Source: Alphaproteobacteria bacterium (lineage in GTDB: Bacteria > Pseudomonadota > Alphaproteobacteria > UBA2966). Taken from it: a stretch of 37,116 nt of DNA. Position 1 is the stretch's first letter, and the number at the start of each line of letters is the position of its first letter. The notes under the pieces are model-generated. The model did no database searches and was not told the DNA's origin. It saw nothing but the letters and a program-made list of their open reading frames with translations. The position numbers and the translations under genes are program-made. The stretch lies in contig JABIFY010000119.1 of the NCBI GenBank assembly GCA_018650465.1, positions 1 to 37,116 on the forward strand, read 5' to 3'. This document shows positions 1-15,600 of this stretch, in pieces.

Positions 1-21
1 CAAATCTGTTGCGATACTCAT
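1..21 (-). CDS. Start of a minus-strand gene cut by the window edge
   Basis: On the minus strand an ATG at 21-19 opens a frame reading M-S-I-A-T-D-L before the window ends. An AGGAG ribosome binding site lies at 35-31, nine bases upstream, which is a good spacing. Only seven codons are visible, so no product can be named. The terminator at 77-105 separates it from the S26-like pair, so it probably has its own promoter. Confidence 0.45.
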
Positions 22-76
22 AGTGTAATACTCCTGATTTTCGATTGATTTTAAAAAGGCCATGCAAATAGACACG

Positions 77-105
77 AAAAAAGCACCTTATGGCCAATAA
101 GGTGC
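77..105 (-). terminator. Intrinsic terminator of the S26-like gene pair
   Basis: A perfect 9-bp stem (83-91 with 97-105) closes a 5-base loop and is followed on the minus strand by six T residues (82-77). It lies about 120 bases past the stop codon of the 224-1012 gene and would end transcription of that pair. The stem is AT-rich in its inner half, so strength is moderate. Confidence 0.75.
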
Positions 106-223
106 TACGTGCTCGAAACGGAAATGTTCGGAGTGATATTCAGTAGTCGGTGAAGTTAAGGTCCTGACGCGTCGAGCCCCGAAACTGCTAATAGAGGGGT
201 TAGTTCAGTAGTTTGCCTGAGAT

Positions 224-1012
224 TTATCTTAAGTATGACAGGGGCGTTACCCAATCGGGCCAATTCGCTACGACTTTTGGTAAGATTCCTATCATTTGAC
301 CTTTGCGAATTATCTTCTTTTGAAAGTAAGTACCCATCTTTGTTGGCGCGCGATTGTCCGCTGAAACGAAATAATGCTCGCTCGCCAAAGCGATTTCATC
401 AGCACATACTGGCTCATCCTTTGAACCGATTTGATTTGTTGCGGGACTTGACTGGCATACAGTTTGACCCGGAATGCCTACAATGCGATTGATTACTTTG
501 TCGCGACCCAGACGATAAACAACCAGGTCGCCAACATTTGGCTTGAAGAAGTCGTCTTGTCGTCCATTATTAATTTTGTAAACCGCAATATCTCCGTAAC
601 AAAGAAGGGGGCACATATGATCGGTTCTCGTTACGGCGTAATCGTAGGGCGAAGAATTTGAGAATGCTGTAAGGAGCAAAAATAAAGCCAATGCCGCGCC
701 ACAAATTGGGGTAACACGTCTTGCTCCGATCTTTGGTAAGTCCAATACCAGGAAGGCATATGCGATCAGCAACACGAGCAAGTTAATAAGCAACAAATTT
801 GCTGAAAGCATAAAGTTCAAACGGAGAGGTCCAAAGGGAACAAAAAGGGGGAGAATTCTTACCGCAAAAAATAGAAAAACCAGTGTGTAACCAAGAGGTT
901 TTTTGCCTACTGAAATCAGGTGCAGACCTGGAACGATCATAAATAGTAAGATTTTTCCAACATATCCAAGTACTGCTGCCAAAAGTTTTTTCAAATCAAA
1001 TGATGTCATCAT
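224..1012 (-). CDS. Polytopic membrane protein with degenerate S26 signal-peptidase-like domain
   Basis: About 262 aa. Hydrophobic stretches near residues 10-34, 40-60, 66-90 and 100-118 suggest four membrane segments, followed by an exported domain that resembles signal peptidase I (family S26). The order of motifs fits: HMCPLLCYGD (132-141), VGDLVVYR, INRIVGIPG (174-182) and YFVSADNR. In LepB these are SMxPTLxxGD, KRGDIVVF, IKRVxGLPGD and GDNRDxS. The nucleophile Ser is replaced by His132 and the general-base Lys by Asn175, so peptidase activity is unlikely. Cys134 and Cys138 form a CPxxC shared with the upstream paralogue. Start: ATG at 1012 (or 1009) behind an AGGA site; a TTG at 1045 is also in frame. 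Follows the 1060-1989 gene by 47 bases and probably forms an operon with it. Function unknown. Confidence 0.72.
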   Translation of the reverse strand: MMTSFDLKKLLAAVLGYVGKILLFMIVPGLHLISVGKKPLGYTLVFLFFAVRILPLFVPFGPLRLNFMLSANLLLINLLVLLIAYAFLVLDLPKIGARRVTPICGAALALFLLLTAFSNSSPYDYAVTRTDHMCPLLCYGDIAVYKINNGRQDDFFKPNVGDLVVYRLGRDKVINRIVGIPGQTVCQSSPATNQIGSKDEPVCADEIALASEHYFVSADNRAPTKMGTYFQKKIIRKGQMIGILPKVVANWPDWVTPLSYLR

Positions 1013-1059
1013 GACTTCCTCGTGGACAATCACCTTTCTGCCCAATAGTAGTTGGCTTG

Positions 1060-1989
1060 TTATCTAGCATTTGAGATTGATTTTGGTTTTTCAGACGTTG
1101 AGGAAAAACCAAACAAATTAATATTTGTCCATTTATATATAGTCAGAAGCGTACGACCCAGGATGGCAGTGTTGTCATCAGAGACCAATTGATATTCACT
1201 GATATTGCCAATTTTCACGGACTGAATACCAATGATCCGGGTTCTTTCAATCAAGTTGACATTGCCTTTTTGTTTGGCTGGGAAGGTATATTGCCCTTTG
1301 CCGAGAACGACATAATCGAATGGGAAAAAGTCGTAGTTACTTAGACAAAAGGCGTCGTAAGGCAAATAATTCTCGATGGTCTCATCCTCTGTACAGTCCT
1401 TTCCTCGCGGTCCTGCCAATATTTTAGCAACGCCCAATTTGGTGGAGGTGTTCGGAACTGCAACATTTTCAAGTGAAACGATAACATGTTTTCCGACGGC
1501 TATTTCCCCAACCCGATGAGAGTTCAATTCATATTGAACAATGTCGTTAATGCAAAATTCAGGACAAGTCTGATTTCCTTGTTCAACAAGAATGTAACTG
1601 AAATCCCGATCATGCAGGGGCATGAAGAACATCAGAATCACAATTGACGCAGGTATAATATTGACGGGTTTTAGTGAACGGTTTTCCAGGTTGCCAAAAT
1701 CACTGGCAAGCAGAACCCATGAAATTAGCTGTGCGATAAATGGCAACTCGACATATGGGTGAACTTTGCCAAATTCATTGGCAAAAAAATCAAGTGGACT
1801 GTTAGAAACAACAAAGCTGGCAACAACGAAGAGTGCAAACAACAGGCTACCCAGAATCTTCCGATTACAGGTAATTTGATGCAGGCCAGGTACGAAGACG
1901 AACACAGCGAGTTTGGTCAGGTAGTTAAGGCTTCGCCCTAAAGTCCAGTCCCGTGAAAGCCAGGGTAATTTTGTCTGAAAGAATTCCAT
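1060..1989 (-). CDS. Paralogous polytopic S26-like membrane protein, catalytic residues absent
   Basis: About 309 aa. It shares with its downstream neighbour the N-terminal membrane motif VPGLHQI followed by a basic turn and LG (residues 33-47), four hydrophobic segments, and an S26-like outer domain. The active-site loop reads QTCPEFCIND (140-149): Gln140 replaces the catalytic Ser, and a CPxxC (142-146) matches the neighbour's CPLLC. The second box AKILAGPRG has no catalytic Lys. A further Cys pair follows (GKDC and AFCL). The two proteins are divergent but clearly related, so they look like an old duplication. Start: ATG at 1989 behind AGGTGA; a GTG at 1995 is the alternative. It is first in a two-gene unit. 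The region is AT-richer than the cox cluster, which suggests acquisition. Function unknown. Confidence 0.7.
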   Translation of the reverse strand: MEFFQTKLPWLSRDWTLGRSLNYLTKLAVFVFVPGLHQITCNRKILGSLLFALFVVASFVVSNSPLDFFANEFGKVHPYVELPFIAQLISWVLLASDFGNLENRSLKPVNIIPASIVILMFFMPLHDRDFSYILVEQGNQTCPEFCINDIVQYELNSHRVGEIAVGKHVIVSLENVAVPNTSTKLGVAKILAGPRGKDCTEDETIENYLPYDAFCLSNYDFFPFDYVVLGKGQYTFPAKQKGNVNLIERTRIIGIQSVKIGNISEYQLVSDDNTAILGRTLLTIYKWTNINLFGFSSTSEKPKSISNAR

Positions 1990-2068
1990 GCTCACCTATA
2001 TGCAGGGACCAGGGACATTTTTATGTGATCCAAGAAATTAAGAGCAATTCCCCATCACATCTTTTTGC

Positions 2069-2097
2069 ACAATATCACGTGTTTTGGGTAAACACAA
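2069..2097 (-). promoter_or_regulatory. Candidate promoter for the S26-like pair
   Basis: On the minus strand a TTGTGT (-35, 2097-2092) and a TATTGT (-10, 2074-2069) are separated by exactly 17 bases, about 80 bases before the ATG at 1989. A CACGTG palindrome lies in the spacer. An ATGTGAT/ATCACAT inverted pair (2023-2029 and 2054-2060) lies downstream and could be an operator. Inference from sequence only. Confidence 0.45.
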
Positions 2098-2142
2098 GCG
2101 TAATTTATGTTTTCTGGGTATTCTTCCCTTGTTGGCTCAAAC

Positions 2143-2237
2143 TCACCCCGCCTCAGTCCCGCCAACCGTCAATTCATCAATCTTCAGTGTCGGCTGGCCC
2201 ACGCCGACCGGCACGCCCTGGCCGTCGTTGCCGATCA
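2143..2237 (-). pseudogene. tldD: Remnant of a second tldD 3' end
   Basis: Positions 2145-2226 match the 3' end of the intact tldD (3534-3615) with six differences in 82 bases. After a GTC the match resumes with GTTGCCGATCA, which in tldD lies 39 bases further inside the gene. The fragment therefore has an in-frame 13-codon deletion between two GTC triplets. Translated on the minus strand it reads [14 protein letters not shown] and on to the normal C-terminus, ending in TGA where tldD has TAG. All base differences before the stop are at third codon positions and silent, so the fragment diverged while its parent was still coding. It is in the same orientation as tldD, and the two copies bracket the receiver/Hpt genes. 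Confidence 0.85.
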
Positions 2238-2321: not shown

Positions 2322-2420
2322 GATTTTATGCCGATTTCGGCTTGATTCGAATCACTATAGTTCTCATTGGTACCCTGTTTATTGTGCGCAGTACGTCAAC
2401 TACGAAATAACACCGGGCTA

Positions 2421-2936
2421 ATGGCAATAAAAAGACTGGACCTCTCTGCACTCAATTTTCTGGTTATTGATGATGGTCAGTTTATGCGGCTGATCATCAA
2501 GCAGATTTTGCGTGGCCTGGGTGCCACGAGCTACAAGGAGGCGGAGGACGGGCTTGAGGGATTGGAAATCCTGGACAACTATCCTGCCGACATCATCATA
2601 CTCGATATCATGATGGAACCCATGAACGGCATCGAATTCACGCGTCGTTTTCGGGCCTCCAAGGGTGCTGCCAACCCCAAAGCACCCATTATCATGCTGA
2701 CCGCTTATTCAGATGGTCCTGCGTTGCACCAGGCGCGCGATGCAGGTGCCACTGAATTTATTAACAAGCCCGTTTCGGGCGGAACGTTATATTCGCGTAT
2801 TGAAGAAGTCATTTTAAGACCTCGGCAATTTGTTCGCTGCCGCAGCTTTGTTGGCCCGGATCGCCGCCGGCTGGCCAAGAAACATGACACGGGTGACCGC
2901 CGTCGCAAGGGTGAAGATGTCAGCAATGCCCAATAG
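2421..2936 (+). CDS. CheY-like receiver-domain protein
   Basis: About 171 aa. A single receiver domain covers roughly residues 12-130: acidic pair Asp17-Asp18, phospho-acceptor Asp62 in IIILDIMM, Thr94 in MLTAYSD and Lys116 in INKPVS. All the residues needed for phosphorylation are present. There is no DNA-binding or enzymatic output domain. The tail holds an Arg-rich FVGPDRRR motif, seen in other alphaproteobacterial single-receiver proteins. The frame extends upstream to 2367, but the ATG at 2421 gives a normal receiver N-terminus. The Hpt gene follows after 18 bases, so the two are probably co-transcribed. No histidine kinase lies nearby, so the phosphodonor must be elsewhere. Confidence 0.85.
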   Translation: MAIKRLDLSALNFLVIDDGQFMRLIIKQILRGLGATSYKEAEDGLEGLEILDNYPADIIILDIMMEPMNGIEFTRRFRASKGAANPKAPIIMLTAYSDGPALHQARDAGATEFINKPVSGGTLYSRIEEVILRPRQFVRCRSFVGPDRRRLAKKHDTGDRRRKGEDVSNAQ

Positions 2937-2954
2937 TTGGTTGCAGGAGAAAAG

Positions 2955-3476
2955 ATGAACATTAACAATTCAGGCTCTGATGGAGACGGGGATCAAGAGG
3001 ATGATTTCGAAGTCGAAATCTCCCCGCCTTCATACGAATTGATGGGCAAGGCCCCGGTGATTGAAGATAATCTCGAACCGGCTTTGCGCGAAATCAGTGC
3101 TGTTCTGCAATCGAAAAGTGACATGTACCGCAAACGTTTGTTTGAAGCGGTTGAGCGGTTGGAAGAAACCTATAAAATTCTTGTCGCTGATGCGGCGTCG
3201 CGAGAGGGTCTGACGACCTTGCGCAAATTGGCGCACAATCTGAAGGGTGAAGGGGGGACTTTTGATTATCCCATGATCTCCGAGATATGCCGGACGTTTT
3301 GCACATTCATAGAAGACATGGAGAAAGCCAGCGCTTTTGACCTGGCTGTCATCCGGCTGCACATCGATTCAATTCACATGGTCACCGCGCAAAACCTGCG
3401 GGGAGATGTCGCTAAGCAGGGCAGCGAAATTCTCGAAGGACTGCGAGCCGTTATCCAGCAGGGCGCGCGCAAGTAA
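2955..3476 (+). CDS. Hpt-domain (histidine phosphotransfer) protein
   Basis: About 173 aa, with an AGGAGA site five bases before the ATG at 2955. The core motif LAHNLKGEGGTF (residues 92-103) with His94 is the classic Hpt signature, where the histidine shuttles phosphate between receiver domains. Residues 1-40 are acidic, low-complexity and probably disordered. The rest is predicted helical, as expected of an Hpt bundle. Position directly after a receiver gene suggests the two are relay partners. The frame also reads back to 2937, but the ribosome binding site favours 2955. The target process is unknown. Confidence 0.75.
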   Translation: MNINNSGSDGDGDQEDDFEVEISPPSYELMGKAPVIEDNLEPALREISAVLQSKSDMYRKRLFEAVERLEETYKILVADAASREGLTTLRKLAHNLKGEGGTFDYPMISEICRTFCTFIEDMEKASAFDLAVIRLHIDSIHMVTAQNLRGDVAKQGSEILEGLRAVIQQGARK

Positions 3477-3531: not shown

Positions 3532-4968
3532 CTACCCCGCCTCAGTCCCACCAACCGTCAGCTCATCGATCTTCAGCGTTGGCTGGCCCACGCCGACCGG
3601 CACGCCCTGGCCGTCCTTGCCGCAGGTGCCGACGCCGGGGTCGAGTTCCATGTCGTTGCCGATCATGCTGACTTTGGTCAGGACATCGGGGCCGTTGCCG
3701 ATCAGGGTGGCGCCTTTGACGGCGGCACCGATTTTGCCGTTTTCGATCTGGTAGGCTTCGGTGCAGGTGAAGACGAACTTGCCGCTGGTGATGTCGACCT
3801 GGCCACCGCCAAAGTTCACGGCATACAAACCGTTTTTGACGGATTTGATGATTTCTTCCGGGTCTTGGTCGCCATTTTCCATGACCGTGTTGGTCATACG
3901 CGGGATGGGCATGTGGGCATAATCCTGGCGGCGGCCGTTGCCGGTTGGGGCAACGCCCATCAGGCGGGAATTCAGGCGGTCCTGCATATAACCTTTCAGG
4001 ATACCGTCTTCGATCAGCACGGTGCGGCTGGTCGGGGTGCCTTCATCGTCGATGCTTAAAGATCCGCGCCGATCCATCAAGGTGCCGTCATCCACCACGT
4101 TGACACCAGGGGAGGCCACGCGCTGGCCCAGCAATTCGGAAAAGGCGCTGGTTTTTTTGCGGTTAAAATCACCTTCCAGGCCGTGGCCAATGGCTTCATG
4201 CAGTAAAATACCTGGCCAGCCTGGCCCGAGCACAACAGGCACAGTGCCCGCCGGGGCGGGAACGGAGGACAGGTTCACGTCGGCCTGGCGCATGGCTTCG
4301 TCGATGGCGGCTTTCCAGGATTCCGGCTTCAGATAGTCGGCATACAGGGTGCGGCCACCTGTGCCAAAGCTGCCGGTTTCCTGGCGGTCGCCTTCGCCCA
4401 GCACGACCGATACGTTAAAGCGCACCAGGGGGCGCACGTCGCCAGCCCGGCTGCCATCGGCCCGCAGGATTTCGACCACCTGCCACGATCCAGCCAGAGA
4501 AGCAGAGACCTGGCGCACGCGGTCGTCGCTGCTGCGGGCATAGGCATCGATTTCTTCCAGCAGTTTAACCTTTTCCCCGAACGGCACATCGTTCAGCGGA
4601 TTGTCATCTATATATAAAGACTGGTTGGTGCCGGTGGGCCCGTCAGCCATGGTGCCTGAACGGCCCTGGCGCACAGACTGAACGGTGTCTGATGCGCGCT
4701 TGATGGCGGCTTCAGACAGTTCCGAAGCATGGGCATAACCGGTTGATTCGTCGGACACAGCCCGCAAACCAAAGCCTTGTGAGGTATCGAAACTGGCCGA
4801 TTTCAGACGACCGTCATCCCAGGCGAGGGCTTCGGATTGTTTATATTCCAGGAATAACTCACCATCGTCGCAGCCGCTCAAGGCACCCTCGACCAGGCCC
4901 TGAACCTTGTTTCGGTCCAGGCCGGCGCGGGTGAATAACATTTCTTCGGCTTTGCTGCTGTCGCTCAT
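3532..4968 (-). CDS. tldD: Metalloprotease TldD
   Basis: 478 aa, full length for the family. TldD forms a heterodimeric zinc protease with TldE/PmbA that degrades unfolded peptides and trims some modified-peptide precursors and antitoxins. The active-site helix HEAIGHGLEGD is at residues 257-267, giving the HExxxH zinc motif, and the conserved C-terminal [18 protein letters not shown] is intact. It diverges from the cox operon, with about 475 bases between it and ctaC. A second copy of its last codons lies at 2143-2237. No pmbA gene is in the window. Confidence 0.95.
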   Translation of the reverse strand: MSDSSKAEEMLFTRAGLDRNKVQGLVEGALSGCDDGELFLEYKQSEALAWDDGRLKSASFDTSQGFGLRAVSDESTGYAHASELSEAAIKRASDTVQSVRQGRSGTMADGPTGTNQSLYIDDNPLNDVPFGEKVKLLEEIDAYARSSDDRVRQVSASLAGSWQVVEILRADGSRAGDVRPLVRFNVSVVLGEGDRQETGSFGTGGRTLYADYLKPESWKAAIDEAMRQADVNLSSVPAPAGTVPVVLGPGWPGILLHEAIGHGLEGDFNRKKTSAFSELLGQRVASPGVNVVDDGTLMDRRGSLSIDDEGTPTSRTVLIEDGILKGYMQDRLNSRLMGVAPTGNGRRQDYAHMPIPRMTNTVMENGDQDPEEIIKSVKNGLYAVNFGGGQVDITSGKFVFTCTEAYQIENGKIGAAVKGATLIGNGPDVLTKVSMIGNDMELDPGVGTCGKDGQGVPVGVGQPTLKIDELTVGGTEAG

Positions 4969-14184: not shown

Positions 14185-15600
14185 TTGCGATATATCAGCA
14201 CCCGCGGCGACGCGCCCGCACTCGGATTTGAAGACGTTTTATTGACCGGCCTGGCCCGTGATGGCGGCCTCTATTTGCCGGAAACCTGGCCGACATTTTC
14301 GCCCGATGAAATTTCTGCCATGGCGGGCCTCAGTTATCCTGAACTGGCCCTCGTTGTGATGACGCCTTTTGTAGGGGAAGAAATTCCTGAAGCAGAATTT
14401 GCCGAGCTGATAAATGAGGCCTACGCCCAGTTTGATCACCAGGCGGTGGCGCCTTTACGTCAACTGGATCACAACGAATGGCTGATGGAACTGTTCCATG
14501 GACCGACCCTGGCCTTTAAGGATTTTGCCCTGCAATTGCTGGGACGTCTGCTGGATCGCACCTTAAGCAAACGTGGCACGCGGGCCACTATTGTGGGGGC
14601 CACGTCCGGGGATACGGGGTCCGCTGCTATCGAAGCCTGCCGTGACCGGGACGCCATTGATATCTTTATCCTGCACCCCAAGGGCCGGGTCAGTGAAGTC
14701 CAGCGCCGCCAGATGACAACCGTCACGTCCGCCAATGTACATAACATTGCCATTGAAGGTACGTTTGACGATTGCCAGGCCATGGTCAAAGCCATGTTTA
14801 ATAATCTGGAATTCCGCGACGAGATTAAACTGTCGGCTGTGAATTCCATTAACTGGGCCCGGGTCATGGCCCAGATCGTTTATTATTTTCATGCCGCCAT
14901 CGCCCTGGGTGCACCTCATCGCAAGATTACTTTTTCGGTACCGACCGGAAATTTCGGAGATGTCTTCGCCGGTTATTGCGCCCGCCAAATGGGCTTGCCG
15001 ATTGAGCAACTGATTGTGGCCACAAACCGCAACGATATTCTGGCCTGTTTTTTCCAAACCGGCAGTTATGCAAAAGGCACTGTGCATCCCACATTAAGTC
15101 CCAGCATGGACATTCAGGTCTCCAGTAATTTCGAACGGTTGTTGTTTGATATGGAAGACCGCGACGGGGATCGCATTCGGGCCTTGATGGCGGCCCTGGA
15201 TCAGTCCGGGGAATTTGATGTCGATGCGGCACGCCTGGCCGATAGCCAAAAGCTGTTCACAGGTTTGGCCGTTGATGAAGAACAAACCCTGGCAGCCATT
15301 CGTCAGGTGGGCGAAACAACTGGCACTGCGGTGGATCCCCACAGCGCCATTGGCGTTGCTGCCGGACGCCTTGCCCGACGTGATGCGGCTTCTCCCATGG
15401 TGACACTTGCCACGGCCCATCCGGCCAAGTTCCCGGATGCGGTGGAAAAAGCAACGGGGTCCCGGCCTGACTTGCCTGCACGTCTGGCCGACCTGATGGA
15501 CCGCCCCGAACATTATGATGTGATGCCCAATGATTTGGCTGCCGTTATGGCAAAGGTGCGCGAAACAGCGAAAATTACCTCAAAAGGCATATCCTCATGA
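14185..15600 (+). CDS. thrC: Threonine synthase
   Basis: About 471 aa. A PLP enzyme converting O-phosphohomoserine to threonine. The PLP lysine is in HGPTLAFKDFALQLL (Lys112 from this start), with ATSGDTGSAAIEA binding the phosphate. The family begins M(K/R)YISTRG, which fits a TTG start at 14185; another in-frame TTG at 14155 would add ten residues, and neither has a strong ribosome binding site. The stop codon overlaps the start of the M16 peptidase (ATGA at 15597-15600), so the two are translationally coupled, a common alphaproteobacterial arrangement. Confidence 0.95.
   Translation: MRYISTRGDAPALGFEDVLLTGLARDGGLYLPETWPTFSPDEISAMAGLSYPELALVVMTPFVGEEIPEAEFAELINEAYAQFDHQAVAPLRQLDHNEWLMELFHGPTLAFKDFALQLLGRLLDRTLSKRGTRATIVGATSGDTGSAAIEACRDRDAIDIFILHPKGRVSEVQRRQMTTVTSANVHNIAIEGTFDDCQAMVKAMFNNLEFRDEIKLSAVNSINWARVMAQIVYYFHAAIALGAPHRKITFSVPTGNFGDVFAGYCARQMGLPIEQLIVATNRNDILACFFQTGSYAKGTVHPTLSPSMDIQVSSNFERLLFDMEDRDGDRIRALMAALDQSGEFDVDAARLADSQKLFTGLAVDEEQTLAAIRQVGETTGTAVDPHSAIGVAAGRLARRDAASPMVTLATAHPAKFPDAVEKATGSRPDLPARLADLMDRPEHYDVMPNDLAAVMAKVRETAKITSKGISS

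What the first reader, a model, noticed from the sequence alone, without database searches (positions are those of the whole stretch)
224..1989. Tandem S26 signal-peptidase-like membrane proteins with CPxxC in place of the Ser active-site motif
Both proteins keep the S26 motif order but lack the catalytic Ser (His132, Gln140) and Lys. In each, the loop that should read SMxPTL reads CPLLC or CPEFC. A shared CPxxC at the same place in two diverged paralogues suggests selection for a thiol pair, as in redox or metal-binding proteins. Both also have a second pair of cysteines in the outer domain and a conserved VPGLHxI membrane motif. This could be a repurposed signal-peptidase fold acting as a thiol oxidoreductase, chaperone or substrate-holding partner. 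The pair has its own promoter and terminator, so it is a discrete unit.
Basis: partly seen in the sequence, partly recalled or inferred. Interest (0 to 1): 0.72.

Follow-up and report, generated by a model that had tools for sequence, protein, structure and literature searches.

The report
Dead signal-peptidase family with partner proteins
A group of uncultured marine bacteria carries about a dozen copies of a membrane protein built like a signal peptidase whose cutting site has been replaced by a fixed set of four cysteines, usually next to a cysteine-free partner protein with a shared tail, which suggests a protein-handling pair that is not yet described.

Summary
The window genes P0001 (224-1012, -) and P0002 (1060-1989, -) belong to a family found only in this genus: about 13 copies in the window's genome, 5 in a sister Saanich Inlet genome, none in 383 other class-level genomes or in a second sample of 397 Pseudomonadota genomes. 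Mean pairwise identity is 29%, yet six columns are invariant over 15 proteins, and five of them are C-P-xx-C plus two later cysteines. AlphaFold models of both give the signal-peptidase/LexA fold; the best hits are LepB, SpsB and the dead homologue SipA. Catalytic Ser and Lys are lost. The gene pair is not a discrete unit: most copies are followed by a partner gene with a variable N-part and a conserved ~97-aa C-terminal domain. The window's partner starts at base 21 and probably continues on contig C68. Nine of ten partners contain no cysteine, which argues against a thiol oxidoreductase acting on them. Best reading (inferred): a disulphide-stabilised, non-catalytic S26 domain outside the inner membrane that binds or assembles its co-encoded partner, as SipA does for pili. 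Loci diversify fast between the two genomes. Function remains untested.

The parts
1990..2100 (-). Shared promoter-like and leader region of the class B genes: -35/-10-like boxes around 2071-2097, then TGCAAAAAGATGTGATGGGG, then a CCTGGTCCCTGCATA motif at 1999-2013, about 10 nt before the start codon
   Evidence: Alignment of 12 class B upstream regions; exact motif hits in the genome
1060..1989 (-). P0002, 309 aa, class B member: four predicted membrane helices (about 17-32, 44-63, 66-96, 108-122), then an S26-like outer domain (about 130-264) with C142-P-E-F-C146, C199, C215
224..1012 (-). P0001, 262 aa, class A member, closest to true S26 signal peptidases: helices about 7-26, 38-57, 64-90, 102-117; S26-like domain 121-255 with C134-P-L-L-C138, C186, C203
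82..106 (-). Intrinsic-terminator-like hairpin (AGCACCTTATTGGCCATAAGGTGCT-TTTTT) between the class A gene and the partner gene; a hairpin plus T-run sits in the same place in about seven other loci
1..21 (-). First seven codons (MSIATDL) of the partner gene, cut by the contig end; window 1-135 is identical to C68:112515-112649, where the gene continues as a 365-aa Cys-free protein with the conserved C-terminal domain

Best explanation
The two genes are lineage-specific pseudo-signal-peptidases. Four membrane helices carry an S26-type beta domain, probably on the outer side of the inner membrane. Ser and Lys of the catalytic dyad are gone, so it is not expected to cut. The four invariant cysteines most likely form two structural disulphides that hold the loop of the old active site. 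The domain most likely uses the remaining S26 cleft to bind the co-encoded partner protein, probably through the partner's conserved ~97-aa C-terminal domain, and so holds, delivers or assembles it at the envelope, much as dead SipA is needed for pilus assembly. Shown: fold (class A well, class B at moderate confidence), loss of the dyad, invariant Cys, the partner gene downstream, the Cys-free partners, and the genus-restricted expansion. Inferred: location outside the membrane, disulphide pairing, physical binding to the partner, and the assembly role.
For: Fold: P0001 model, LepB Z 9.9 and SipA Z 9.7; P0002 model, SipA Z 7.9, with the top 28 rows all S26/LexA-type or human signal peptidase complex chains. 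Dyad lost. Invariant Cys amid 29% identity. Conserved partner gene directly downstream on the same strand in about ten loci, and partner remnants in more. Partner C-terminal domain and S26-like family have the same distribution, the two genomes of this genus only. Long partners carry a domain homologous to the FrpC self-processing module of exported RTX proteins (E 1e-14 to PDB 6sjw), which points to export. Partners without Cys fit exported proteins and argue against redox chemistry on them. Precedent: SipA lacks the dyad, keeps the cleft and is essential for pilus polymerisation (PMC4049620). Purifying selection between sister genomes (dN/dS 0.23).
Against: No direct evidence of binding. Partners have no recognisable signal peptide, so how they would reach the outer side is unknown. 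Two sister-genome copies (L056, L057) have no partner next to them, and one partner (C83) follows a different one-helix membrane protein. SipA itself showed no pull-down with its pilin (PMC4049620). Class B fold support is only moderate (best Foldseek E 0.09).
Confidence: 0.42

Rival explanations
1. A self/non-self or conflict pair: the cassette encodes a diversifying exported effector (partner) and a membrane protein that neutralises or recognises it; the multi-copy loci diverge under an arms race.
For: About 13 cassettes per genome; at matching loci the S26-like protein diverges sharply while flanking genes do not (34.8% vs 89.6% aa identity at the atp locus, 45.3% vs 93.7% at the proC locus); decayed and partial copies; a domain from exported RTX proteins in some partners.
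Against: Polymorphic toxins usually vary at the C-end and have the immunity gene downstream; here the C-end is conserved and the membrane gene is upstream. No toxin domain was found.
Confidence: 0.22
2. A redox or metal protein: the CX3C pair, with or without the second Cys pair, is a working thiol pair or binds Zn or Cu.
For: The four Cys are the most conserved residues of the family; CX3C spacing also occurs in CuA (CSELC) and Sco proteins (own knowledge).
Against: No His is invariant in the outer domain. The spacing is not CX2C and the best-matching folds are S26/LexA. Partner proteins have no Cys to act on.
Confidence: 0.14
3. A still-active peptidase with a changed catalytic group, for example a Cys nucleophile.
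For: The Cys sit in the loop that carried Ser; the S26 fold is kept.
Against: The Ser position itself is His in P0001 and Gln in P0002; the Lys position is Asn in P0001 and Ser in the L043 copy; neither Cys is at the Ser position.
Confidence: 0.06
4. Surface-variation families: both proteins are simply exposed, diversifying surface proteins (phage or host evasion), with recombination among copies.
For: Low dS of the cassette (0.34) against the flanks (about 1.0) at the C62/C115 locus suggests exchange between lineages; 135 identical bases followed by abrupt divergence at the window/C68 junction.
Against: The S26-like domain keeps its fold and Cys under purifying selection (dN/dS 0.23). The partner tail is well conserved (65% mean column identity).
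Confidence: 0.1

Closest known systems
SipA of Streptococcus pyogenes, catalytically dead S26 homologue (PDB 4n31; PMC4049620)
   Same: S26 fold (Z 9.7 and 7.9 to the two window models), Ser-Lys dyad lost, encoded next to a putative exported partner
   Different: SipA has one N-terminal anchor and sits in a sortase pilus locus of a Gram-positive, and no conserved tetra-Cys is reported for it; here four helices, invariant Cys, a Cys-free partner with a new C-terminal domain, and a multi-copy family in an alphaproteobacterial genus
Type I signal peptidase LepB/SpsB (Pfam PF10502, TIGR02227)
   Same: P0001 passes the Pfam cut-off; motif order and beta fold kept
   Different: Ser and Lys absent; CX3C and a second Cys pair added; a separate true LepB is present in the genome (C94:36596-37243)
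FrpC self-processing module of RTX exoproteins (PDB 6sjw/6sjx; PMC7078468), for the partner proteins
   Same: A long partner matches it with E 1e-14 over about 160 aa
   Different: The Asp of the Asp-Pro cleavage bond is Phe here (GFPIVLDLDGDG); only some partners carry the domain; a unique C-terminal domain follows

Membership tests
Type I signal peptidase (S26) | S26 beta fold | tested here: met
   P0001 Z 9.9 to LepB; P0002 Z 7.9 to SipA and 7.1 to LepB, moderate confidence
Type I signal peptidase (S26) | Catalytic Ser in SMxPTL | tested here: not met
   His132 in P0001, Gln140 in P0002 at that position
Type I signal peptidase (S26) | Catalytic Lys before the Arg of box D | tested here: not met
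   Asn in P0001 against K of KRIVGLPGD in LepB
Type I signal peptidase (S26) | Sequence profile above the curated cut-off | tested here: inconclusive
   P0001 26.5 vs 22.9 bits in Pfam, but 29.2 vs 47 in TIGR02227; P0002 no match
SipA-type dead S26 assembly factor | S26 fold without the dyad | tested here: met
SipA-type dead S26 assembly factor | Encoded with sortase and pilins | tested here: inconclusive
   Recurring neighbour is a different partner gene; the partners tested match no Pfam or NCBIfam family above its cut-off; flanks were not scanned for sortases by profile
SipA-type dead S26 assembly factor | Required for assembly of the partner into a polymer | not testable with these tools
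   Needs genetics or biochemistry
Thioredoxin/DsbA-type oxidoreductase | CX2C motif | tested here: not met
   Spacing is CX3C in all 15 aligned members
Thioredoxin/DsbA-type oxidoreductase | Thioredoxin fold | tested here: inconclusive
   Both models rank S26/LexA folds on top; absence from such a list does not exclude a fold
FrpC self-processing module (partners) | Sequence homology to the module | tested here: met
   phmmer E 1.2e-14 to 6sjw
FrpC self-processing module (partners) | Asp-Pro bond at the module's N-end | tested here: not met
   Phe-Pro in L043 and L055 partners
Polymorphic toxin-immunity system | Variable C-terminal toxin domain with the immunity gene downstream | tested here: not met
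   The C-end is the conserved part and the membrane gene is upstream

The most novel reading that the evidence does not exclude
A new C-terminal-signal display or assembly system: diverse exported proteins share a ~97-aa C-terminal domain that is recognised by a family of four-helix, tetra-cysteine pseudo-signal-peptidases, with about a dozen fast-diverging cassettes per genome under a shared promoter.
Probability: 0.27. Interest if true: 0.8.

Novelty: new variant of a known kind. Interest (0 to 1): 0.52.

Why it matters
Dead signal-peptidase folds with a job other than cutting are rarely described (SipA is the worked example found here). A second case, in Gram-negatives and with a co-encoded partner family, would let one ask whether the S26 cleft is a general peptide-recognition module. 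It would also give a name to two protein families of which only P0001 passes a curated family cut-off among the members tested, and offer a natural set of fast-evolving cognate pairs in which specificity can be read.

Tried and rejected
Searching for P0002 in GTDB contigs with single-sequence patterns found nothing; the alignment query found only the sister genome JABILA01. Viral contigs and plasmids hold no relative; PADLOC and PHROGs give no informative name for the S26-like proteins. Thiol oxidoreductase was judged unlikely on spacing, fold and the Cys-free partner. CuA- or Sco-like copper sites were considered and judged unlikely because no His is invariant in the outer domain. Direct hhalign of the class B domain against LepB failed (E 0.59) and works only through class A. 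The leader motif CCTGRTCCCTGCATA was first taken for a family signature, but it also precedes unrelated genes. No thioredoxin, sortase or pilin fold appeared in the structure lists. The model coordinates could not be opened, so Cys-Cys distances were not measured.

Full report
What was checked. P0001 has a Pfam S26 match above the curated cut-off over residues 110-205; P0002 has none. In a BLAST of the two, the similarity covers the membrane part and the CPxxC loop (E 3e-12).

A family, not a pair. A search of the window's own genome found about 13 related genes on 11 contigs, some split by contig ends, and five in the one other genome of the genus. Aligned searches of 385 genomes of the class and a second sample of 398 of the phylum found no further carrier; distant relatives could be missed by the first look. 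The sister genome is a Saanich Inlet metagenome bin (SI054_bin61; the place name is own knowledge of that series). A tree splits the family into class A (P0001 and two others) and class B (P0002 and eleven others) with support 100/99.

The cysteines. Over 15 members with mean pairwise identity 29%, six columns are invariant, and five of them are C, P, C, C, C. The same four cysteines can be read in the second, helix-less S26-like domain fused into the C129 copy and in the copy split between C27 and C114. One sister copy (L057) has lost most of the membrane part but keeps all four. The spacing of the first pair is CX3C.

Fold. The AlphaFold model of P0001 (pLDDT 77.5) matches E. coli LepB (Z 9.9), SipA (9.7) and SpsB (8.7), then LexA-type domains (Foldseek E 1e-4). 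The model of P0002 (pLDDT 75.1) has SipA on top (Z 7.9), then SpsB and LepB; its first 28 rows are S26/LexA-type or human signal peptidase complex chains, but no Foldseek E-value is below 0.001, so class B rests on moderate structural support plus its clear profile match to class A (hhalign E 7e-14). In the class A/LepB alignment, SM-x-P-T-L-x-x-G-D pairs with HM-C-P-L-L-C-Y-G-D, and the catalytic Lys pairs with Asn. Catalysis by the usual dyad is therefore not expected; other chemistry is not excluded.

The missing third gene. Comparing neighbours of all copies showed one recurring gene directly downstream, on the same strand: a protein with a variable front (coiled-coil-like, or a Gly/Ser-rich stretch plus a domain homologous to the FrpC self-processing module, E 1e-14) and a conserved C-terminal domain of about 97 residues. 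This domain matches 11 places in the own genome and 3 in the sister genome, and no other genome among 29 relatives or 397 others searched. In the window only its first seven codons are visible (1-21, -). Bases 1-135 are identical to C68:112515-112649, where the gene runs on as a 365-residue protein ending in the conserved domain; upstream of those 135 bases the two contigs differ completely. The join is therefore likely but not proven; a strain variant or a paralogous cassette would look the same.

Cys-free partners. Nine partners hold 0 Cys in 2816 residues; 33 would be expected at the rate of the window's long ORFs. A tenth has two Cys, in a tail that looks frameshifted. This makes it unlikely that the CPxxC pair does thiol chemistry on the partner.

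Control region. Twelve class B genes share an upstream region with promoter-like boxes, TGCAAAAAGATGTGATGGGG and a CCTGRTCCCTGCATA motif some 10 nt before the start. A terminator-like hairpin plus T-run lies just before the partner start in the window and about seven other loci, often after a mini-ORF of one to six codons with a good ribosome-binding site. This looks like an attenuator that sets the partner's level (inference). In the window alone the pattern scan finds no more terminator- or promoter-like sites than shuffled sequence; the weight comes from the recurrence across loci.

Diversification. At matching loci of the two genomes the S26-like proteins are 34.8% identical where atpG is 89.6% identical, and 45.3% where proC is 93.7%. 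At the glyQ/RND locus the cassette has dS 0.34 against about 1.0 for its flanks, which suggests more recent exchange; dN/dS there is 0.23 for the S26-like gene and 0.43 for the partner.

Mechanism. The best-supported reading is a non-catalytic S26 receptor or assembly factor for a co-encoded exported protein. Steps shown: fold, loss of the dyad, fixed cysteines, partner linkage, Cys-free partners. Steps inferred: domain outside the membrane (helix count and charge pattern), two disulphides, binding of the C-terminal domain, and an assembly or display role. SipA is the precedent: dead dyad, kept cleft, essential for pilus polymerisation, though its binding partner has not been caught (PMC4049620).

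Limits. Two draft genomes only, the sister one a metagenome bin; shallow alignments (14-15 rows) behind the models; no coordinates to measure Cys distances; no functional data.

Noticed in passing
window 2145-2233 and 3534-3622: An 89-nt, 92% identical direct copy of the 3' end of the tldD-like gene lies just upstream of the class B promoter; a response-regulator gene and an Hpt-like gene (2367-3476, +) lie between the copies, as after an insertion or duplication at that gene end.
   Followed up: partly
genome-wide; e.g. L085, L093, L102, L107: The motif CCTGRTCCCTGCATA (26 hits with up to one mismatch, 6 for the reversed control) also precedes unrelated genes that I read as a glycine-zipper protein, a DUF4019-like protein, a REP-type transposase and a YifB-like protein; what it does is unexplained.
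   Followed up: partly
L042, L053, L043, L047, L048, L049, L055 between S26-like gene and partner: Mini-ORFs of a few codons (MNEQ, MSMN, MIGN, MTVNK, MSNNND) with strong ribosome-binding sites precede the partner, in several loci in frame with it.
   Followed up: partly
L046:59-1447 (-), contig C129: A class B protein fused to a second S26-like domain without membrane helices, again with all four cysteines.
   Followed up: no
L127 / L103, contig C83 near 51-53 kb: A partner with the FrpC-like domain follows a different one-helix membrane protein that has the same leader motif; the membrane component seems to have been swapped.
   Followed up: partly
L043 near 14700-14932 and L048 near 8000: Remnants of decayed cassettes: the C-end of a class B protein upstream of the C62:43k partner, and a partner tail fused to a mini-ORF at C68:100k.
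   Followed up: no
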